Part shown: positions 3,451 to 43,245 of the stretch, piece after piece
How positions within the stretch are numbered: position 1 is the stretch's first letter
How the letters are laid out: the number at the start of each line of letters is the position of its first letter
From: Pseudomonadota bacterium
GTDB lineage: Bacteria; Desulfobacterota; Desulfobulbia; Desulfobulbales; SURF-16
Length of the DNA stretch: 45,688 nt
Assembly (NCBI GenBank): GCA_018816555.1
Contig: JAHIVT010000153.1
Span: 1 to 45,688 of the forward strand
Direction: 5' to 3'
Notes under the pieces: model-generated
Database searches by the model: none
Told to the model about the DNA's origin: nothing
What the model saw: only the letters and a program-made list of their open reading frames with translations
Made by a program: the position numbers and the translations under genes

Positions 3451-4686
3451 TTACAACCCGGCTGCTTTCATATGCAAAGGAATTATCTCCGCTCCCTGCT
3501 TCAAACCGTCCAGATAATCCGCCCAAGCCTGCATCATCTTTTTGCGCTCCGGCAAATGTGCCGTGCGGTTGTATGCCCGTCCCAACGGATCGCGCACCGC
3601 ATGGGCCAACTGGTGTTCAATGAAATCGGGCCTGAAGCCCAGCACTTCATCCAGGATAGTTCGTGCCACAGCCCTAAAACCATGTCCGGTTATTTCCGTT
3701 TTGGTATCTATTCCCATGCGCCGCATTGCCGCATTCATGGCCATATCAGACATAGGCCTTGTATTGGTTCTTGCCGAAGGAAACACGTAGGTGTCATTGC
3801 CGGAGAGAGGGTGAATCTCCCGGAGAATTGCCACCGCCTGTTTTGCCAAGGGAACAATGTGCGGGGTCTTGGTCTTGTTCACCATGTAGGACCACTCACC
3901 CTTTTCCAGATCCACATCCGCCCATAACATGGTCCGCAGTTCTCCTGGCCGGACAAACAACAGGGGAAGCAGCCGCAAGGCGCATCGGACCACGAGAGTG
4001 CCCTGGTAGCCGTCAAGCATACGCAGGAGGGGGGCAACCTCTTTAGGGTCGGTGGTGGCTGCCCGGTGGGTTGTCTTAATCGGAGTGAGAGCGCCTTTCA
4101 GGTCGGCGGTCGGGTCACGCTCACACCTGCCCGTCGCCACACCATAGCGGAAAATCTGACTGCAAAGACCGCGCACCCTATGGGCCGTATAATTCGCACC
4201 TCTTGCCTCTATGCGGCGCAACATGTTCAGCAGCAGAGGAGCATTGATGGAGGCAATAGGTTGATTGCCAATCTCCCCAAAAACATCTAAGGACAGCATG
4301 TCAAGGATTGCCTCCGCTGTTCGTGGTGCCCATTGGGGGAGAAACTGGTTGTGCCACTCACGGGCCACGACTTCAAAGGTTTCCTGCTCCCGGAGGATGG
4401 CCGCCTCCTGCTCCTTCCTGGCCGCGCCGGGATCAATTCCCTTGGCGATAAGCGTTCGTGCCTCTTCTCGCCTTTGCCTTGCAAGGGAAAGGGAGATTTG
4501 GGGGTATGCACCAAGTGACAAGAGTTTTTCCCTACCCCCAAAACGATACTTGAAACGCCACAACTTGCCGCCGGTGGGCTTAACCAACAAAAACAAACCT
4601 CCGCCATCAAAGAGCTTGATATCCTTGGAATCAGGCTTCATTGAACGAATCTGCGTGTCAGTCAAAGGGGTTGTCCGCTTGGGCAT
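3451..4686 (-). CDS. int: Tyrosine integrase, P4/DUF4102 type
   Basis: A 411-residue site-specific recombinase. The N-terminal DUF4102 arm-binding domain (about 5-90) shows DGGGLFLLV and LSLGAYPQISL. A core-binding domain (about 100-200) precedes the catalytic domain (about 210-390). Visible catalytic residues are R246 (in RPGELR), H335-G-F-R338, H362 (in HQLAH) and the nucleophile Y372 (in GRAYNR), so the enzyme looks intact. The start at 4686 is chosen because GGAGG lies seven bases upstream; the frame is open for 26 further codons, but those overlap promoter-region repeats. It sits 190 bases from the 3' end of tRNA-Leu, the usual place for an integrase of a tRNA-targeting island. Confidence 0.93.
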   Translation of the reverse strand: MPKRTTPLTDTQIRSMKPDSKDIKLFDGGGLFLLVKPTGGKLWRFKYRFGGREKLLSLGAYPQISLSLARQRREEARTLIAKGIDPGAARKEQEAAILREQETFEVVAREWHNQFLPQWAPRTAEAILDMLSLDVFGEIGNQPIASINAPLLLNMLRRIEARGANYTAHRVRGLCSQIFRYGVATGRCERDPTADLKGALTPIKTTHRAATTDPKEVAPLLRMLDGYQGTLVVRCALRLLPLLFVRPGELRTMLWADVDLEKGEWSYMVNKTKTPHIVPLAKQAVAILREIHPLSGNDTYVFPSARTNTRPMSDMAMNAAMRRMGIDTKTEITGHGFRAVARTILDEVLGFRPDFIEHQLAHAVRDPLGRAYNRTAHLPERKKMMQAWADYLDGLKQGAEIIPLHMKAAGL

Positions 4687-4711
4687 TGGCTTACCTCCAG
4701 AATAGGCATCC

Positions 4712-4766
4712 TTGGGGGTACACAAGTTTTCTTTATTGGGGTACACCCCCAAAGATACCCCCAAAA
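4712..4766. repeat. TTGGGGGTA repeats upstream of the integrase
   Basis: TTGGGGGTA occurs at 4712-4720, a shortened TTGGGGTAC at 4736-4744, and the inverted form TACCCCCAA at 4756-4764. They lie in the integrase promoter region, between it and the tRNA attachment site. Likely binding sites for the integrase arm domain or the AlpA-like protein; this is inferred from position. Confidence 0.5.
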
Positions 4767-4810
4767 CTCATGGATTTCAGCATATCACAACAGATATTAT
4801 CGGACAACAG

Positions 4811-4842
4811 AAAAAGAAAAAGCCCTTATTTCTAAGGGCTTC
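4811..4842 (-). terminator. Rho-independent terminator of tRNA-Leu
   Basis: On the minus strand AAGCCCTTA, a 4-base loop and TAAGGGCTT are followed by TTTCTTTTT. It lies 34 bases past the tRNA 3' end and separates the tRNA transcript from the integrase. Confidence 0.8.
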
Positions 4843-4875
4843 CTGGATGGTTCCGGATGTTCTCGGATTATAATT

Positions 4876-4962
4876 TGGTGCCGGAGGTCGGGCTCGAACC
4901 GACATGACCTTGCGGTCGCGGGATTTTGAGTCCCGTGCGTCTACCAGTTTCACCACTCCGGC
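4876..4962 (-). tRNA. tRNA-Leu (anticodon CAA)
   Basis: The minus strand folds as a class II tRNA. The acceptor stem GCCGGAG pairs with CTCCGGC, followed by discriminator A and an encoded CCA (4876-4878). The anticodon stem CGGGA/TCCCG encloses the loop CTCAAAA, giving anticodon CAA, which reads the leucine codon UUG. A long variable arm (CGACCGCAAGGTCATG) and the T-loop GTTCGAGCC are typical of tRNA-Leu. The gene is intact although an integrase abuts its 3' end, as expected when the element restores the tRNA end on integration. Confidence 0.97.
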
Positions 4963-5194: not shown

Positions 5195-5686
5195 TCATCT
5201 TTCGCAGATACCCCGGAAAACCTGGCGCAGCACCGGATCACTCAATTTGGCGGACAGCTGCTCCTCATACTCGTCAACCATCTCCTCGACCAGGGTATCA
5301 GCCAAGCAGTCGGACGGGGTTTCCCCGTTTTCCGCCACAAAGATGAAACTATCGGGCTCCACCTGCAGCTTAATGCCCCGCTTCTTGTTGAGCCAGCGGT
5401 CGCACTCGTCATGGGTGCCCACATAGAGCAGAAACAGCTCACTGTCCCTTTTTAGGCTGATCAGCCGGTAGCCGCTGCCCAGGTCGTATTTCAGACATTT
5501 TCTGACCCGCAACTCCCCGCGTTTGGTGCGTTTGTTCATCATGGCCACACACTGCCAGCCATCCACGGCCAGCTGCCTGATGATCTCTGCGGCACGTTCA
5601 GCCGCCTGGGCTCCCTTCTTATCAGCCTTGTCCAAGGCCTTCAGCTGTTTCTCGAAAAGAGGTGTTCGGTAAAGAGATAATTCCAT
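5195..5686 (-). CDS. RelE/ParE-like fold protein with acidic C-terminal extension
   Basis: A 163-residue protein. The first ~100 residues resemble the RelE/ParE toxin fold: an N-terminal helix (YRTPLFEKQLKALDKADKKG), a beta-hairpin region with basic residues (GELRVRKCLKYDLGSGYRLI) and LFLLYVGTHDECDRWL, which matches the usual final strand and helix. Unlike ordinary ~90-residue toxins it continues for ~60 residues, including an acidic helix (about 128-150). No antitoxin gene adjoins it. Start supported by GAGGGA upstream. It may be a solitary RelE-superfamily protein rather than an active toxin; the fold call is by pattern only. Confidence 0.6.
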   Translation of the reverse strand: MELSLYRTPLFEKQLKALDKADKKGAQAAERAAEIIRQLAVDGWQCVAMMNKRTKRGELRVRKCLKYDLGSGYRLISLKRDSELFLLYVGTHDECDRWLNKKRGIKLQVEPDSFIFVAENGETPSDCLADTLVEEMVDEYEEQLSAKLSDPVLRQVFRGICER

Positions 5687-5884: not shown

Positions 5885-6418
5885 TTATTTTACGCTTTCC
5901 ACCGGGTAACCGGCTCCTTTCCAGGCAAAAATTCCGCCTGGCTGGCGCAGCACGTTCTTGTAGCCGAGCTTTTTGGCCCACTCGGCCCCGTTGTGGCTGC
6001 GGGTACACTTGACAAAGCCGCAGTAGACCACGATGGTTTTGTCCTTATCCGGGCCGAGCAGGGCGGCGTAATCTTCCATGGTCTTGCCGTCTGTCTCCTT
6101 GGTGTCCCACTGAGCCATATCCGGGATGGGAAAGAGAAACTGCTTGGCGCCGGGGATGTGTTCCTTTTTATAGCTGGAGTCATAGGGCATGGTATCAACA
6201 ATGAGCATGTCCTTGCCGGAATCAATCATTTTCTTGAGTTCTTCCGTGGAGATGACATCATAACCGCCCCGCTGCACCTCCCGCACCAGCTTGATCGCCG
6301 CAGTTTCAGTCTCCACTTCCTGCTCGAATTTATTCTTGCCAAAGGCAAAAGCCTGTGTTGAAAAAGCCATCAGCATGACCACCAGCGAAAGCACAATCAA
6401 AGTTTTACTCTTGCTCAT
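5885..6418 (-). CDS. Exported rhodanese-domain protein
   Basis: A 177-residue protein with a signal peptide (about 1-25: Lys-rich start, hydrophobic core, AFA cleavage motif), so probably periplasmic. The rhodanese domain spans about 54-175. The active-site loop is VVYCGFVKCTRS, with C133 in the catalytic position and a second Cys at 138; PGGIFAWKGAGYPV is the typical rhodanese end. Rhodaneses carry sulfane sulfur as a cysteine persulfide. It is the last gene of an operon, 18 bases after the MauE/DoxX-like gene. The partner and physiological sulfur donor cannot be read from the sequence. Good ribosome site (GGAGAACGAA) upstream. Confidence 0.85.
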   Translation of the reverse strand: MSKSKTLIVLSLVVMLMAFSTQAFAFGKNKFEQEVETETAAIKLVREVQRGGYDVISTEELKKMIDSGKDMLIVDTMPYDSSYKKEHIPGAKQFLFPIPDMAQWDTKETDGKTMEDYAALLGPDKDKTIVVYCGFVKCTRSHNGAEWAKKLGYKNVLRQPGGIFAWKGAGYPVESVK

Positions 6419-6436
6419 TTCGTTCTCCTCATTTAT

Positions 6437-6919
6437 TCATTTATTTCTGATAAACAGGCCCTGCCGGGCCTGTTTCGTTAACTGCGTTTGACGCCACCAA
6501 TAGAGATAGACAGCGCCCATCATCATGGCCATATCCCGCGCCAGCGAGCTGTGCAGACTGTTATAGACCCTGGCCTCAGGAGCTTCCGGGCCGAAACAGC
6601 CGCAATCAATATCCAGCCCGAGCCGGATACCGTAGGAGAGCACAGCGATAAACAGCAGCAGCATAATAACCACCGCTGAAAGCGCCCCCCGCATGTCAAT
6701 CAGCAACCCCAGAGCGGCAAGCAGTTCCACGGCAGGCAGCATGACGGCAACCGGCCAGACCAGGCTTTCCGGCAGCAGGCCGAAATCGTCAATCACCGCG
6801 CCGAAGCCCTGCAGATTGCCCAGCTTCATAACGCCGGCATAGAGGAAAAGCACGCCAAGCAGACTGCGGACCAACAGATATGCCCGGGATGAAATAAATA
6901 TCCTCGGCAGGGCCGTCAT
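6437..6919 (-). CDS. MauE/DoxX-family redox-associated membrane protein
   Basis: A 160-residue protein with four predicted membrane helices (about 15-32, 53-73, 78-100, 127-143). Near the third helix is the motif DIDCGCFGP (C106, C108), the CxC signature of MauE-like proteins, which are thought to act in thiol/disulfide or electron transfer across the membrane, as proposed for MauE in methylamine dehydrogenase maturation. Its ATG overlaps the activase stop codon (ATGA), so the two are translationally coupled. The context suggests it links the cytoplasmic double-cubane proteins to the periplasmic rhodanese; that link is inferred. Confidence 0.8.
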   Translation of the reverse strand: MTALPRIFISSRAYLLVRSLLGVLFLYAGVMKLGNLQGFGAVIDDFGLLPESLVWPVAVMLPAVELLAALGLLIDMRGALSAVVIMLLLFIAVLSYGIRLGLDIDCGCFGPEAPEARVYNSLHSSLARDMAMMMGAVYLYWWRQTQLTKQARQGLFIRNK

Positions 6920-7665
6920 GCCAGACCCGCCTGGATGGCCGCCCCCAGCGCGCCGACGATATCCGGCAGCTCCGGAGACAACACGCTGACCCCTTCCAGC
7001 CGCGCCTGCAGCAGTTTCACGATGCAGGGATTACGGGCCACGCCCCCGGAAAAGACCAGGCAGTCGCCGTAACCCACCCTGTTCAGCATGCCGATCAGCC
7101 TGCTGACCACGGAGAGATGCACCCCCATGGCAATATCCCTGGCCGGCACCCCGCGGTTCTTCATGGAGATCACCTCGGACTCGGCAAACACCGTGCACAT
7201 GGAGTTGATGGCCACGTCCTGCTCGGACTCCAGGGCGGCCGGGCCGAACTCGTCCAGGCTGTAGCCCAGGGTGGCGGCCATGATCTCCAGAAAGCGGCCG
7301 GTTCCTGCGGCACACTTGTCATTCATCTGAAAGTTGCTTACCCGGCCCTGCTCATCGAGAGCGATCACCTTGGAATCCTGGCCGCCGATATCGACAATGG
7401 TGCGGCAATCCGGAAAATAATATCTGGCCCCCAGGGCATGGGCCTTGATCTCGGTGATCACCTCGTGGGCAAAATGCTTCTGGGCCAAGTGGCGACCGTA
7501 ACCGGTGGCCACCACCCTGACCGGATCAAAGCCTTCCATCATCTCCAGCGACTGCCGGTGCGGGTCAAAACCGCTCTCCCGGATCTGATGCCCGATAAGC
7601 CGGCCATCCTGGAGTGCGGCAATTTTGACGGTGCGGGAGCCGAGATCTACGCCGACAAACATCAT
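6916..7665 (-). CDS. ATP-dependent activase of the BadF/BcrA/HgdC family
   Basis: A 249-residue ASKHA-fold ATPase. N-terminal phosphate-binding motif GVDLGSRTVK (5-14), a second phosphate motif VDIGGQDSKV (91-100), and the two cysteines expected to bridge a [4Fe-4S] cluster between the subunits of a dimer, C118 (NDKCAAGTGRF) and C157 (SMCTVFAESEV). Such proteins use ATP to push low-potential electrons into 2-hydroxyacyl-CoA dehydratases or double-cubane cluster proteins. It begins on the last base of the double-cubane gene's stop codon (TGATG), marking the two as a dedicated pair. Length matches stand-alone activases (~250-260). Confidence 0.9.
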   Translation of the reverse strand: MMFVGVDLGSRTVKIAALQDGRLIGHQIRESGFDPHRQSLEMMEGFDPVRVVATGYGRHLAQKHFAHEVITEIKAHALGARYYFPDCRTIVDIGGQDSKVIALDEQGRVSNFQMNDKCAAGTGRFLEIMAATLGYSLDEFGPAALESEQDVAINSMCTVFAESEVISMKNRGVPARDIAMGVHLSVVSRLIGMLNRVGYGDCLVFSGGVARNPCIVKLLQARLEGVSVLSPELPDIVGALGAAIQAGLA

Positions 7666-8954
7666 CAGCCCCTGATCTGCTCCAGAAATGCCTCGATTCT
7701 GGTCTGCAGTTGCCCCACATCCTCGGGAGAATAATCGGACTCAATGGAGAGATAGGGGATGCCTTCCTTCTGGCAGGCCTCCTTGATCCTGATCTCCTCA
7801 ATATTGTAGGTATGGCAGAACTGCAGGGAATAATGGAGAATTCCCTGGGCCGTGCTTTCCCGGTACTCCTTGATCACCTGGTCGATGCGTTCATCGTTGG
7901 GGGTAAAGCAGGAGCAGTCGATCTTCATGTAGCGGTCGGTCAGCACATCGAGCTGGCCGTCGATATCTTTGATATTTTCGTCAATCAGATCCTTGAAATA
8001 GCGGGTGCCGATACAGCTCTCCTCACCCACGATGACCGCGCCGGCGGTCTCCACCAGGTTGTGCACCTTCCAGTTGGGCAGGGCCATGGGCACGCCGGCC
8101 ACCATCACCCGGGGCGCATCCGCCGTCATGACCCCTTCACCTTTTTTGACCCTCTCCTCCAGCTCGTCGCACAGGGCATTTACTTTCTCGGCAAAACGCA
8201 CCGGCTCATCATAAAAGGCGATCTGCTCAATGAGCAGGGCATCCTTGCCGCTGATGGGCGCGGGATTGTTGGCCCGCAGCCGGGTCAGCCGCTGCAGGGC
8301 CCGACGTTTGTTATTGATGACCTTGATGGCGGCAGCCAGGTCATCGGCGGATATCTTTTTGCCGGAGACCACCTCAACCTTGTGCTTGAACTCCTGCACT
8401 TCACCCAGCCACAGGTCCTTGTCCCGCTTATTTTTCATCTGCGGAATCTCCATGACATAGGTGGGAACGAGCCGGTCAAGAATCTCCCAGGTCTTTTTCT
8501 TGGCATCACAGGTGGTTTCGCCGTAGACAAAATCAACGACCTGGAAATAGGGGCAGATTTTACCGGCCTTGAAGCCATAGGCTGACTTGACCATCGGGCA
8601 GATATTGCGGGGCAGAATCTTTTCCGCGTCCGGGATGGATCCCTGGGAGCCGCCGCACAATCCCACGCAGATGCCGCCGGCAGCCACCACCACCTCCTCC
8701 GGGATATAGACACAGAAGGTGCCCACCACCGGCCGCCCCTCTTTTTTAGCGGCCACCAGCTCCTGCACCCGGCCGCCATGGATCTCCGCAACCATGTTGT
8801 CAAAATAATCCATGCGGGTTGGCCGGTTCTGCTGGGAAAGATAGATGGAGGCATAGGCGCTACCCAGCATCTGCCGCGCCTTGTCAAACCTTGCCACATC
8901 AACCCCCAGCTCCTGCCACATCTCCGGGTATGCCTTCACTTCAAAATCCGCCAT
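7665..8954 (-). CDS. Double-cubane cluster protein (2-hydroxyacyl-CoA dehydratase superfamily)
   Basis: A 429-residue HgdB/BcrBC-like protein. Cysteines are spread in family motifs: C81, ICVGLCGGSQ (C96, C100), NICPM (C119), KICPYF (C134), GETTCD (C149), DCSCFTPND (about 320) and FCHTYNI (about 370). Single-subunit proteins of this form next to an activase match the double-cubane cluster protein described from Carboxydothermus, which holds an [8Fe-9S] cluster and performs ATP-dependent low-potential reduction of small substrates; the natural substrate is unknown. The alternative, a subunit of a true dehydratase, is less likely because no second dehydratase subunit or CoA-transferase is present. 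It heads a four-gene operon. Confidence 0.82.
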   Translation of the reverse strand: MADFEVKAYPEMWQELGVDVARFDKARQMLGSAYASIYLSQQNRPTRMDYFDNMVAEIHGGRVQELVAAKKEGRPVVGTFCVYIPEEVVVAAGGICVGLCGGSQGSIPDAEKILPRNICPMVKSAYGFKAGKICPYFQVVDFVYGETTCDAKKKTWEILDRLVPTYVMEIPQMKNKRDKDLWLGEVQEFKHKVEVVSGKKISADDLAAAIKVINNKRRALQRLTRLRANNPAPISGKDALLIEQIAFYDEPVRFAEKVNALCDELEERVKKGEGVMTADAPRVMVAGVPMALPNWKVHNLVETAGAVIVGEESCIGTRYFKDLIDENIKDIDGQLDVLTDRYMKIDCSCFTPNDERIDQVIKEYRESTAQGILHYSLQFCHTYNIEEIRIKEACQKEGIPYLSIESDYSPEDVGQLQTRIEAFLEQIRG

Positions 8955-39014: not shown

Positions 39015-40121
39015 ATGAAAGGACTGATCGACAGCACATTACGGGAAGGCGAGCAGGCCCCCGGGGTTTTCTTTCCCCTGGCGGTAAAAATAAAAATCGC
39101 TAAACTGCTGGCCAGGATAGGCATCGAAGAGATCGAGCTCGGCATCGCCACCCCCTACGACCAGGAACTCCCCTTGCTCATGCGCATTCTGCGGCGCAGG
39201 AGCAGCAGCAGCAGCCTGGCCCTCTGGTGCCGGTGCGTTGTCGCGGACATTGACTTTGCCGCCGCGCTTGCCCCTGACGTTCTTTCCCTGTCGATCCCGG
39301 CCTCGGATCTGCATATCTATGAAAAACTCGGCCGCAACCGCAATTGGATCAAAGAGACTTTGGCCCAGGCCATCCGACACAGCCTGGCACAAGGCATTAC
39401 CTCTGTTTCCGTAGGGCTGGAAGATGCCACCCGGGCTGATGAGGATTTTCTGGCGCAGCTCATTCAGACCGCGGAGCAGGCCGGGGCCGCCAGGGTACGG
39501 CTGGCGGATACGGTGGGAATTGCCAGCCCGGGAACAATCGCCGGGCTCGTCCGCAGGATTGCCAGGATCAGCACGCTTGAGATCGGCATTCATGCCCATA
39601 ACGACTTCGGCATGGCCACGGCCAATGCCATTGCAGCACTTGAGGCCGGAGCCGACTGGGCTGACGCCACTGTCCTCGGTATCGGGGAGCGCGCCGGCAA
39701 CAGCCGACTGGAGGAGATGGCAGGCTACCTTGCCCTGCGCGGCGACAGACGCCCTTACAAAACCGAACATCTTCGTCCCCTCTGTCTGACCGTGGCCCAT
39801 GCCGCAGCAAGACAGATTCCCGGCTCCCATCCCCTGGTGGGCGATGAAATCTTCACCTGCGAAACCGGCCTGCATCTGCAGGGCCTGACCAGAAATCCGG
39901 CTACCTATGAGCCTTATGACCCGGAAAGGGTGGGAGGAGAGCGACGCCTGCTGCTGGGCAGGAAATCAGGCAAAAGGGCCATCCAGGACCGGTTGCACGC
40001 CTTGGGCTGCTCCCTGCCGGAAGAAAGACTTGAACAGGTCGTCCACCTGGTCCGCCGCGAGGCGGGCAGCAAAAGACGGCCACTCAATGATGAGGAAATC
40101 CGTACGATTATCGGCGTCTGA
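39015..40121 (+). CDS. nifV: Homocitrate synthase
   Basis: A 368-residue DRE-TIM metallolyase condensing 2-oxoglutarate and acetyl-CoA to homocitrate, the organic ligand of FeMo-cofactor. DSTLREGEQAPGV (6-18), HAHND (193-197, metal-binding His pair) and GERAGN (224-229) are typical. The C-terminal part (HPLVGDEIFTCETGLHLQGL) fits NifV-type enzymes and is shorter than isopropylmalate synthases, which carry a regulatory domain. A run of five Ser (AGC repeats, about 63-67) is a minor oddity. The setting next to nifA and nifH supports nifV over leuA. Confidence 0.9.
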   Translation: MKGLIDSTLREGEQAPGVFFPLAVKIKIAKLLARIGIEEIELGIATPYDQELPLLMRILRRRSSSSSLALWCRCVVADIDFAAALAPDVLSLSIPASDLHIYEKLGRNRNWIKETLAQAIRHSLAQGITSVSVGLEDATRADEDFLAQLIQTAEQAGAARVRLADTVGIASPGTIAGLVRRIARISTLEIGIHAHNDFGMATANAIAALEAGADWADATVLGIGERAGNSRLEEMAGYLALRGDRRPYKTEHLRPLCLTVAHAAARQIPGSHPLVGDEIFTCETGLHLQGLTRNPATYEPYDPERVGGERRLLLGRKSGKRAIQDRLHALGCSLPEERLEQVVHLVRREAGSKRRPLNDEEIRTIIGV

Positions 40122-40190
40122 CGTGTCGCGGTCCTGAGCCAAAGCGAGCACCCCTCCGGGAGTCAGAAGCATCCTCCCGCAAATAAAAAA

Positions 40191-40223
40191 GGAAAAGCAA
40201 AGATATCACCTCTTTGCTTTTCC
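40191..40223 (-). terminator. Bidirectional terminator between nifV and nifA
   Basis: GGAAAAGCAAAGA (40191-40203) pairs with TCTTTGCTTTTCC (40211-40223). On the minus strand it is followed by TTTTTT, ending nifA; on the plus strand only a short T-rich tail follows, so it also insulates nifV. Confidence 0.85.
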
Positions 40224-40232
40224 GTTTGATTG

Positions 40233-41837
40233 TTATTGCCATTGCTCCGGCCTTTTCAGGCCATACTTCTTGATCTTGTAGCCGATCTGCCGCTGGGTCA
40301 AGCCCAGCTCCCGGGCTGCCCTGGACTGCACCCAACCGTGCCGCTTGAGAGAAGATTCAATTTCCACCCGCTCAATGTCCTTCAGCACTCTCCCTCTTCT
40401 TTCATTGCCTCCTGCCGCGGGAACTAAATCTTCGCCGGAACTCTGAACCGCAACAGTAACCTGCTGCGGCCCGGCAAACATCCGGTCCGGCAAATCCGAA
40501 ATCTGCAGCCAACCGCTATCAGAGAGAATGACCAGCCTCTCGACCAGGTTCTGTAGTTCCCGGACATTGCCGGGCCAGTCATAGGCGGTCAGAAAATCAA
40601 GAAACTCCTTGGTCATTTTCACATTTTTCTCATTGCGCTTATTGCTCGACCTGAGAAAATGATCCAGCAGCAGAGGAATATCCTCTCTTCTCTCCCGCAA
40701 GGGCGGCAGGGTGAGCGGCACCACATTCAGCCGGTAATAGAGATCATTGCGGAATTTGCCCTCAAGCACGGCATTTTCGAGACTGACATTGGTTGCCGCG
40801 ATAATCCGCACATCCACGGTCAAGGTGGAAGTGCCGCCCAGTCGCTCGAACTGGCTCTCCTGCAAAACCCGCAACAGCTTGGACTGCAGGGCAAGCGGCA
40901 GTTCGCCGATCTCATCAAGAAACAGCGTCCCGCCATTGGCCAGTTCAAATCGACCGGGCTTGGTGCTCACCGCGCCGGTGAAGGCCCCTTTTTCATGACC
41001 AAGCAGTTCACTTTCCAGCAGGTTTTCCGGCAAGGCAGCGCAGTTCACCTTGATAAAGGTTTTGTCCTTGCGGGTGCTGGCCTGATGGAGAGCCCTGGCT
41101 ACCAGTTCCTTGCCGGTGCCGGACTCACCCAACAGCAGCACCGTAGCTCGACTGGGCGCCACCTTCTCAATGCTCCAGAAAATGCCCTGCATGGCCTTGC
41201 TTTGCCCGATCATGTAATGCCGGTTGTAACGGCTGTGCAGTTCAGCCTTCAGGCTCTTATTTTCCTCCACCAACACTGCCTGGTTGCGGATGATGGCCCG
41301 ATGCAGACTAAGAAACTGAGCAATCAGGATGGACAGCACGGAGAGAAAACGGATGTCCTCCTCAAAGGAAACATCCATGCCGAAGAGTCGATCCACACTG
41401 AGCACCCCAACGGGCTTCTGGGACAGCATGACCGGCACGCCGATAAAGGAAATGCGCTCTTTGCTTATCTTGGACCTGGCCTTTGTTCGGTTAAGAAAGA
41501 GCGGTTCACTCTGGATATCGGGAACGACAAAGGGAGAACAAGTCCTGAAAATTTGACCGCAAATCCCCTCGTTCAGACCATATACCCCGCGCTGCTCCTC
41601 CTGGACGCTCAGCCCGTATGAGGCGCGGATGCTCAACTTTTCCCCCGATTTATCGAGCAGAAGCAGGGTAGCCCGCTCCATGCGCAGGATGTCATGCACG
41701 ATGCGCAGTATCTTGCTGAGGGTGGTGTCCAGATGAACCGCAGAACCAATAAGCTGACAGATCTCACTTAAGGCCTGCAGCTCAAGGGCTTCAATCGTCG
41801 GCTTCTGGGAAGATGGAATAACGCTTGAAACTGTCAT
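40233..41837 (-). CDS. nifA: Nif-specific sigma-54 activator NifA
   Basis: A 534-residue enhancer-binding protein. N-terminal GAF domain (about 20-180); AAA+ domain (about 205-440) with Walker A GESGTGKE (237-244), GAFTGA (284-289, the sigma-54 contact loop) and Walker B FLDEIG (306-311); C-terminal Fis-type HTH (about 503-526, [19 protein letters not shown]). The linker between AAA+ and HTH (about 440-500) has no cysteine, unlike the oxygen-sensitive NifA of rhizobia. The start at 41837 has GGAG upstream. No NifL gene adjoins; PII contact with the GAF domain is possible. It lies beside nifH, whose upstream region has a NifA site. Confidence 0.94.
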
Positions 41838-42112
41838 TTTTGCTCCATTCAATGGCTGAATTCATATCAATACATATATGTATCTGAGTTTTGCAATATA
41901 TATTCCGCTCCAGCCCAGCATCAAAGTATTCTCCCATCATATTGATATTAAATAATAAAATATCAAAAACACCCAACTCATTTCACTTATCCCGATCTGC
42001 ATAAATACCATAATTGTAAATTTACCAAAACTAAATATTACTTTTTCGTTATATTTTCCCAAAAACAAACAACAGCCCCCATGCTACAAAATTGAAACAG
42101 GAACTTCTTTTT
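41838..42112. promoter_or_regulatory. AT-rich divergent region upstream of nifA
   Basis: Contains the perfect 14-bp palindrome ATACATATATGTAT (41870-41883), centred about 40 bases before the nifA start, and GTAAATTTAC (42016-42025). No consensus sigma-54 promoter faces nifA. A possible minus-strand TTGCAA box (41895-41900) lacks a good -10. The palindrome over the nifA start region may be an operator. No gene is present. Confidence 0.4.
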
Positions 42113-42128
42113 TGTCATCTTCCCGACA
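42113..42128. promoter_or_regulatory. NifA upstream activator sequence
   Basis: TGT-N10-ACA (TGTCATCTTCCCGACA) matches the NifA-binding consensus exactly. It is about 100 bp upstream of the nifH -24 box, the standard distance for activation by DNA looping. Confidence 0.85.
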
Positions 42129-42227
42129 AAAGCGCCTGTCACCATCCCCTTCCCCGCTGTGCCATCTTTACCTGCAACACCTAGTCAACATATTGATAAA
42201 TCAACAATATTTTTTATATCTCCCGAG

Positions 42228-42243
42228 TGGCACACCTCTTGCC
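42228..42243 (+). promoter_or_regulatory. Sigma-54 promoter of nifH
   Basis: TGGCAC-N5-TTGCC is a full -24/-12 match. Transcription would start near 42254, leaving a leader of about 165 bases. Confidence 0.93.

Positions 42244-43245
<1,002 letters not shown>

What the first reader, a model, noticed from the sequence alone, without database searches (positions are those of the whole stretch)
5885..8954. Four-gene system: double-cubane protein, activase, MauE-like membrane protein and exported rhodanese
The stop/start overlaps (TGATG, ATGA) and 18-base spacing make this a tightly coupled operon. A cytoplasmic ATP-driven low-potential reductase pair is joined to a membrane redox protein with a CxC motif and a periplasmic sulfur carrier. 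Such a combination suggests an ATP-driven reduction connected to sulfane sulfur or periplasmic thiols, which would suit a sulfur-metabolising anaerobe. I know of no described function for this set.
Basis: partly seen in the sequence, partly recalled or inferred. Interest (0 to 1): 0.72.

Follow-up and report, generated by a model that had tools for sequence, protein, structure and literature searches.

The report
Two redox modules tied to selenium genes
An anaerobic bacterium carries an operon that joins an ATP-driven iron-sulfur reductase of unknown job to a membrane protein and an exported sulfur-carrier protein, and in related bacteria both halves often sit beside genes that handle selenium, which points to a testable role for this orphan enzyme.

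Summary
The four genes and their overlaps are real. They are not one fixed system but two modules: a double-cubane protein with its activase (DCCP-ACT; DCCP family in 163 of 395 genomes of the phylum) and a MauE-like membrane protein with a distinctive exported rhodanese (RhoA, in 32 of 395; MauE adjoins it in 23 of 29 further loci). The full order recurs in 10 of 80 DCCP loci and is lost or decayed in others. Both modules lie near selenium genes more often than chance predicts. One relative (L010) has SelD-YedF-HesB_Se-RhoB-DCCP-ACT-MauE-RhoA on one strand; another (L120) has DCCP-YedF-Se/S carrier-C_GCAxxG-MauE-RhoA-cysteine desulfurase. Twenty control windows held one HesB gene and no SelD, YedF, rhodanese or MauE match. 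The window's organism has a selenoprotein SelD and a YedF cluster elsewhere. I read the operon as part of selenium/sulfane-sulfur capture and reduction: rhodanese and CxC membrane protein outside, ATP-driven reductase inside. Substrate and direction are inferred. Against: no selenium gene in the window, only 3 of the 10 other four-gene loci have a confirmed one within 6 kb, 25 of 38 sampled DCCP loci have neither kind of neighbour, and 13 DCCP genomes lack a detected SelD.

The parts
7665..8954 (-). double-cubane cluster protein (DCCP), 429 aa, likely ATP-dependent low-potential reductase
   Evidence: NF040772 497.6 bits over cut-off 350; phmmer E 2.8e-157 to PDB 7yyl and 5.8e-157 to 6eno; each of its 12 cysteines is conserved in 79-81 of the 80-81 aligned rows
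6916..7665 (-). activase (DCCP reductase type), 249 aa
   Evidence: TIGR00241 228.4 bits over cut-off 125.4; phmmer matches to PDB 4eht, 1hux and 7yyl chain E
6437..6919 (-). MauE/DoxX-like membrane protein, 160 aa, with an invariant C-x-C in the loop before the last helix, predicted periplasmic
   Evidence: PF07291 93.5 bits, PF07681 35.1 bits; C106 and C108 invariant in 11 rows; AlphaFold2 mean pLDDT 80, but about 50 in the CxC loop; basic N- and C-terminal ends, acidic CxC loop
5885..6418 (-). RhoA: exported-type single-domain rhodanese, 177 aa, active loop CGFVKC, conserved N-terminal extension
   Evidence: PF00581 67.8 bits; YCGFVKC invariant in 11 rows (CGFTKC in L207); AlphaFold2 model poor, pLDDT 51
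5195..5686 (-). conserved downstream neighbour, ParE/RelE-like fold suspected; not claimed as a functional part
   Evidence: homologues within 6 kb at 23 of 80 window-like DCCP loci and 5 of 38 phylum-sample loci; Pfam ParE hits below cut-off

Best explanation
The operon joins two partner modules of a selenium/sulfane-sulfur (chalcogen) handling guild. Outside, exported RhoA binds sulfane sulfur or selenium on its loop cysteine, and the periplasm-facing CxC of the MauE-like protein exchanges thiol electrons with it. Inside, the activase uses ATP to drive electrons onto the double-cubane protein, which reduces an incoming chalcogen species to the -II state (selenide for SelD, or sulfide). Shown: gene content, spacing, recurrence, modularity, and physical linkage of both modules to SelD/YedF/HesB_Se and related genes in relatives. 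Inferred: that RhoA carries selenium, that MauE is its redox partner, the direction of flow, and the DCCP substrate.
For: L010: SelD, YedF, HesB_Se, RhoB, DCCP, ACT, MauE, RhoA in line on one strand; SelD, YedF, HesB_Se, DCCP and ACT over their NCBIfam cut-offs. L120: DCCP-YedF-Se_S_carrier-C_GCAxxG-MauE-RhoA-cysteine desulfurase, all over cut-offs. L129: DCCP-ACT-YedF-rhodanese-MauE-RhoA; L207: YedF and SelD upstream of MauE-RhoA. Full-length YedF in 7 of 29 RhoA regions, four families, against 0.08 expected if one copy per 4.3 Mb. SelD or YedF within 6 kb of DCCP in 9 of 80 and 8 of 38 loci; with HesB_Se added, 29 of 80 and 9 of 38 (the sets share 3 records; HesB is the weakest marker, 1 in 20 controls). 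20 control windows: one HesB, two hits of an unrelated regulator cluster, none of SelD, YedF, LysR, rhodanese, MauE. SelD within 5 kb of DCCP in at least 10 genomes of 6 families (SelD list truncated). RhoA within 10 kb of DCCP in 5 of 32 RhoA genomes (4 families), 0.11 expected. Among 14 well-known control genomes the DCCP family and SelD each match in the same two, E. coli and M. jannaschii. Own genome: SelD with an in-frame TGA and a YedF-desulfurase-Se_S_carrier cluster. Lin et al. 2015 (PMC5322559, passages) list an activase and 2-hydroxyglutaryl-CoA dehydratase subunits as STRING partners of YedE, YedF, LysR and DUF3343 in Slackia. Rhodanese as a debated selenium-binding protein: PMC8538045 (passages).
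Against: No SelD, YedF, HesB_Se or LysR match in the 45.7-kb window. Of the 10 other four-gene loci only 3 have a confirmed selenium gene within 6 kb (L010, L068, L071); L027, L035 and L040 have a LysR below the selenium-LysR cut-off (220-227 against 250) that scores higher to YeiE; L002, L003, L019, L058 have none. The DCCP of L120 has no activase match in its 14-kb region. 13 of 163 DCCP genomes lack a detected SelD. SelD is so common (346 of 395) that presence/absence says little (DCCP 150/163 against 196/232, p 0.03; RhoA 31/32 against 315/363, p 0.16). The 5 SelD loci of the 38 come from two families. 25 of 38 sample loci, and 22 of 80 window-like loci, have neither a rhodanese nor a YedF/SelD/HesB/LysR hit within 6 kb. 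[quoted passage not shown] coli, so ATP-driven reduction is not known to be needed. Relatedness inflates all counts; no correction was made.
Confidence: 0.47

Rival explanations
1. Sulfur only: the operon serves periplasmic sulfane sulfur, polysulfide or thiosulfate. The selenium neighbours reflect shared sulfur-type carriers, not selenium as substrate.
For: 41 of 80 window-like DCCP loci have a rhodanese of one of three types within 6 kb, 36 within 2 kb, and only 15 of those 41 also have SelD, YedF or HesB_Se; many record titles name Desulfobulbales, known for sulfur metabolism (recalled); periplasmic rhodaneses are discussed for sulfur trafficking in cable bacteria (PMC13047784, passages).
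Against: SelD, YedF and HesB_Se are annotated selenium families and recur beside both modules; sulfur reduction does not obviously need ATP-driven electrons (recalled, no call).
Confidence: 0.28
2. Envelope thiol and oxidative-stress system: MauE(DoxX)-rhodanese works like the mycobacterial DoxX-SseA-SodA membrane oxidoreductase complex, and DCCP-ACT keeps a redox partner reduced.
For: PF07681 DoxX hit on the membrane protein, 35.1 bits over cut-off 23.6; DoxX, SseA and SodA form a membrane-associated complex (PMC6930017, passages); MauE-RhoA lies beside a C_GCAxxG redox protein in L120 and L124.
Against: The DoxX match is superfamily level; superoxide dismutase was not searched for at these loci, and none was recognised in the gene maps.
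Confidence: 0.13
3. DCCP is a nitrogenase-like scavenger of small N or C compounds (azide, hydrazine, acetylene in vitro), and MauE-RhoA is an unrelated neighbour.
For: In vitro substrates as cited in PMC11971306 (passages); a NifH-like gene at 42421 in the same window (recognised by eye).
Against: RhoA lies within 10 kb of DCCP in 5 genomes of 4 families against 0.11 expected. Nif genes were not searched for at the DCCP loci.
Confidence: 0.08

Closest known systems
DCCP and DCCP reductase of PDB 6eno/7yyl (Carboxydothermus hydrogenoformans, organism recalled)
   Same: Same family over its cut-off, aligned over residues 11-428 with shared cysteines
   Different: Physiological role of the known pair is called unclear (PMC11971306, passages); here it shares an operon with MauE and an exported rhodanese, and relatives sit by selenium genes
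Selenium gene clusters of Lin et al. 2015 (YedE, YedF, LysR_Se, DUF3343, Sec lyase; PMC5322559)
   Same: Activase and 2-hydroxyglutaryl-CoA dehydratase subunits appear in their STRING table; much of the set plus MauE-RhoA occurs in L120
   Different: In the passages seen those authors do not name the dehydratase/activase pair among their candidates; MauE has 0 occurrences in the text; the window's operon lies apart from its genome's YedF cluster and SelD
M. tuberculosis DoxX-SseA-SodA membrane oxidoreductase complex (PMC6930017, passages)
   Same: DoxX-superfamily membrane protein with a sulfur-type partner (that SseA is rhodanese-like is recalled; the paper calls it a predicted thiol-oxidoreductase)
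   Different: Exported-type rhodanese, anaerobe, linked to DCCP; no SodA recognised in the operon
TsoB rhodanese/DsbD fusion-like selenoprotein (NF045694)
   Same: Best NCBIfam match of RhoA (99 bits)
   Different: Far below the cut-off of 805 and only profile positions 9-159 of 572; no in-frame TGA in RhoA

Membership tests
double-cubane cluster proteins (NF040772) | profile score over curated cut-off | tested here: met
   497.6 against 350 bits
double-cubane cluster proteins (NF040772) | conserved cysteines | tested here: met
   12 window cysteines each in 79-81 of 80-81 aligned rows; alignment to 7yyl/6eno. Which of them bind the cluster was not mapped
double-cubane cluster proteins (NF040772) | [8Fe-9S] cluster and ATP-dependent reduction | not testable with these tools
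   needs purified protein
acyl-CoA dehydratase/DCCP activases (TIGR00241) | profile score over cut-off, beside its partner | tested here: met
   228.4 against 125.4 bits; activase profile hit within 6 kb in 77 of 80 DCCP loci
MauE (PF07291) | profile score over cut-off, C-x-C | tested here: met
   93.5 against 27 bits; CxC invariant in 11 rows
methylamine-utilisation MauE proper | lies with MauD thioredoxin and the mau cluster (recalled) | tested here: not met
   the partner is a rhodanese and none of the four genes is a thioredoxin; not filed as such
thiosulfate:quinone oxidoreductase DoxDA | DoxD/DoxA domains and quinone-linked thiosulfate oxidation (recalled) | tested here: inconclusive
   PF07681 DoxX 35.1 bits over cut-off 23.6 but no DoxD/DoxA family match on the four proteins; activity not testable
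selenium-metabolism guild | selenium genes in the same neighbourhood in relatives | tested here: met
   L010, L120, L129, L207; 29 of 80, 9 of 38 and 7 of 29 loci against controls
selenium-metabolism guild | selenium gene in the window itself | tested here: not met
   no SelD, YedF, HesB_Se or LysR hit in 45.7 kb by these profiles
sulfur-disproportionation YTD cluster | yedE, tusA, dsrE and conserved hypotheticals together | not tested
   described in PMC12998232 (passages); not searched for here

The most novel reading that the evidence does not exclude
DCCP-activase is a dedicated ATP-driven reductase that turns protein-bound Se(0)/perselenide into selenide for SelD, and MauE-RhoA is its envelope intake arm that takes selenium from the periplasm and passes it inward.
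Probability: 0.17. Interest if true: 0.87.

Novelty: new variant of a known kind. Interest (0 to 1): 0.62.

Why it matters
The in vivo job of double-cubane proteins is described as unclear (PMC11971306, passages), and how thioredoxin-bound selenium is finally reduced to selenide for SelD is called an open question (PMC8538045, passages). A reproducible genomic link between the two, plus an exported-type rhodanese with a membrane CxC partner in the same clusters, turns both into one bench-testable hypothesis.

Tried and rejected
Fixed four-gene system: rejected, because both halves occur apart and the cassette (11 of 80 tips) needs 6 parsimony changes on the DCCP tree (shuffled mean 10.5), with MauE fragments left in L026 and L077 and a RhoA remnant in G301.

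Selenium-type LysR as evidence: weakened after checking. The cluster is mixed: L043, L068, L071, L119 and L124 pass NF040786, L027, L035 and L040 fail; the other LysR genes were not scored against it. LysR counts are left out of the main counts. YedF-profile hits of 43-49 bits in L186, L189 and L199 (open frames of 71-91 aa, TusA-like) were dropped by a 120-bit threshold.

Structure route: the MauE model is usable (pLDDT 80), but Foldseek found nothing at E<=0.001 in the PDB; the RhoA model is poor (pLDDT 51) and was not searched.

Phage collection: only 2 records, 22-23% identity. Literature: double-cubane+activase+rhodanese gave 0 papers; selenophosphate+2-hydroxyacyl-CoA dehydratase gave 0; the double-cubane/selenide/yjiM/selenophosphate synthetase search gave 176 papers with at least two terms, 12 listed, none of those 12 holding double-cubane. 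The library lacks most subscription papers, so absence is weak.

Promoter-like sites 4 against 3.1 in shuffles, terminator-like 9 against 4.8: not used. A Pfam scan of 96 unclustered neighbour proteins (of 116 listed; 20 left out, mostly short or very long) gave no dominant family; best counts were 4 of 96 methyltransferases.
Full report
Observation. The window carries, on the minus strand, DCCP (7665-8954), activase (6916-7665), a MauE-like membrane protein (6437-6919) and an exported-type rhodanese, here RhoA (5885-6418), with overlaps TGATG and ATGA and an 18-base gap. Family scores pass the curated cut-offs: NF040772 497.6/350, TIGR00241 228.4/125.4, PF07291 93.5/27, PF00581 67.8/22.2. DCCP aligns almost end to end with the solved protein 7yyl/6eno, and each of its 12 cysteines is conserved in 79-81 of 80-81 aligned rows. 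A fifth co-directional gene, 5195-5686, follows 198 bases later.

Modularity. Of 80 DCCP loci from named genomes (the best 80 of 129 confirmed), 10 have DCCP-ACT-MauE-RhoA in order, one of them (L071) with an extra gene between. L026 and L077 keep only MauE fragments. On a DCCP tree the cassette (11 of 80 tips, the window included) needs 6 changes; shuffles average 10.5 and none of 1000 is as low. In 395 genomes of the phylum, RhoA occurs in 32 at E<=1e-20 and the DCCP family in 163 at E<=1e-60, 132 of them over the family's cut-off. DCCP is in 24 of the 32 RhoA genomes and 139 of the 363 others (p 1e-4, relatedness not corrected; my count from the two lists). MauE adjoins RhoA in 23 of 29 other genomes' loci, but RhoA lies within 10 kb of DCCP in only 5 of 32 genomes: the window's, G030, G278, G201 and G301. 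G301 is of the same genus and has only a C-terminal RhoA fragment with a stop, right after the activase. Random expectation is 0.11. A quick RhoA tree mixes DCCP-linked and lone copies.

Selenium neighbourhood. Neighbour clustering gave families whose representatives pass NCBIfam cut-offs for YedF (TIGR03527), SelD (TIGR00476), IscA_HesB_Se (NF038090) and, for part of a LysR cluster, LysR_Sec_metab (NF040786). With score thresholds and a 6-kb limit, SelD or YedF lie near DCCP in 9 of 80 window-like loci and 8 of 38 loci of a phylum sample; with HesB_Se the counts are 29 of 80 and 9 of 38. Twenty control windows of 14 kb, about 300 kb from a DCCP or RhoA gene in 20 genomes, held one HesB gene, two hits of an unrelated regulator cluster, and no SelD, YedF, LysR, rhodanese, MauE or DCCP match. 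From the genome lists, SelD is within 5 kb of DCCP in at least ten genomes of six families (G164, G075, G045, G072, G086, G277, G391, G028, G100, G065); the SelD list was truncated, so this is a lower bound. Among 14 well-known control genomes, the DCCP family and SelD match in the same two, E. coli and M. jannaschii.

The same holds for the other module on its own. Of 29 RhoA regions (window excluded), 7 contain a full YedF (L119, L120, L124, L125, L129, L131, L207; four families), against 0.08 expected for one copy per 4.3 Mb; L207 also has SelD, and L119 and L124 a LysR over the NF040786 cut-off.

Bridging loci. L010 (Desulfobulbus sp. SURF_48) has, all on one strand, SelD, YedF, HesB_Se, tandem rhodanese RhoB, DCCP, activase, MauE, RhoA, then a small Cys-rich protein, the ParE-like gene and a transglutaminase-like gene; SelD, YedF, HesB_Se, DCCP and ACT pass their cut-offs. 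L120 has DCCP (no activase match in its 14 kb), YedF, Se_S_carrier (PF11823), C_GCAxxG_C_C, MauE, RhoA and a TIGR01977 cysteine desulfurase. The window's own genome has a SelD with an in-frame TGA (read as U at AAGUAAK) and, on another contig, YedF, a TIGR01977 desulfurase and a Se_S_carrier.

Topology and chemistry. MauE has four predicted long helices, basic ends and an acidic loop with the invariant DCxCF motif before the last, which puts the CxC on the periplasmic side by the positive-inside rule. RhoA has an invariant CGFVKC loop in 11 rows, so a second cysteine could resolve a persulfide or perselenide. The DCCP superfamily includes [4Fe-5S] and sulfur-transferring members (TudS) (PMC11971306, passages). 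H2Se is called a powerful reductant with a potential close to that of H2 (PMC5187540, passages), so strongly reducing electrons for selenide formation are plausible but not proven necessary.

Weighing. The linkage of both modules to selenium genes is well supported; the step from linkage to mechanism is inference. The window itself lacks a selenium neighbour, only 3 of the 10 other four-gene loci have a confirmed one, 25 of 38 sample loci and 22 of 80 window-like loci have neither kind of neighbour, and 13 of 163 DCCP genomes lack a detected SelD. A sulfur-only role is the strongest rival: rhodaneses are near DCCP in 41 of 80 loci, more often than selenium genes, though in only 2 of 38 sample loci. 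Lin et al. 2015 already list activase and 2-hydroxyglutaryl-CoA dehydratase subunits among STRING partners of selenium genes in Slackia, so the DCCP side of the link exists in print as table entries; in the listings and passages that I saw no paper proposes it or the MauE-RhoA side.

Noticed in passing
window 5195-5686 (-): Small conserved gene with sub-threshold ParE-toxin similarity, with homologues within 6 kb of DCCP in 23 of 80 loci of several operon types; function unknown.
   Followed up: partly
window 3451-4962: Phage-integrase gene next to tRNA-Leu(CAA), with lower G+C to its left: an integrated element seems to end just downstream of the operon.
   Followed up: no
among DCCP loci: L030, L031, L035, L040, L054, L059, L062, L066-L068; and L005-L008, L010, L016, L023, L034, L045, L048: Two other rhodanese types with signal-peptide-like starts (about 140 aa with CPRG-type loop, and tandem about 265 aa) also sit beside or near DCCP; rhodaneses recur with DCCP in three forms.
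   Followed up: partly
L004:6252-7943, L081:6168-7940: One open frame holds both a transglutaminase-like part and a tandem rhodanese directly upstream of DCCP, a possible natural fusion of two guild members.
   Followed up: no
L006, L008, L016, L022, L025 upstream of DCCP: HdrA-like and FlpD/MvhD genes (possible electron supply) precede a rhodanese and/or HesB_Se and DCCP.
   Followed up: no
L010:8244-9257, L024:6754-7914 and others: Transglutaminase-core protein with a signal-peptide-like start near DCCP at 15-16 of 80 loci; a transglutaminase-like enzyme is also in the Slackia YedF partner list of PMC5322559.
   Followed up: partly
L124:3271-5766 and L234:5839-7429: Metal-ABC-transporter-like genes (by eye) beside YedF/MauE-RhoA in one genome and beside the window genome's SelD.
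   Followed up: no
window 39015-43245: Homocitrate-synthase-like, NifA-like and NifH-like genes (by eye) in the same window, about 30 kb from the operon.
   Followed up: no
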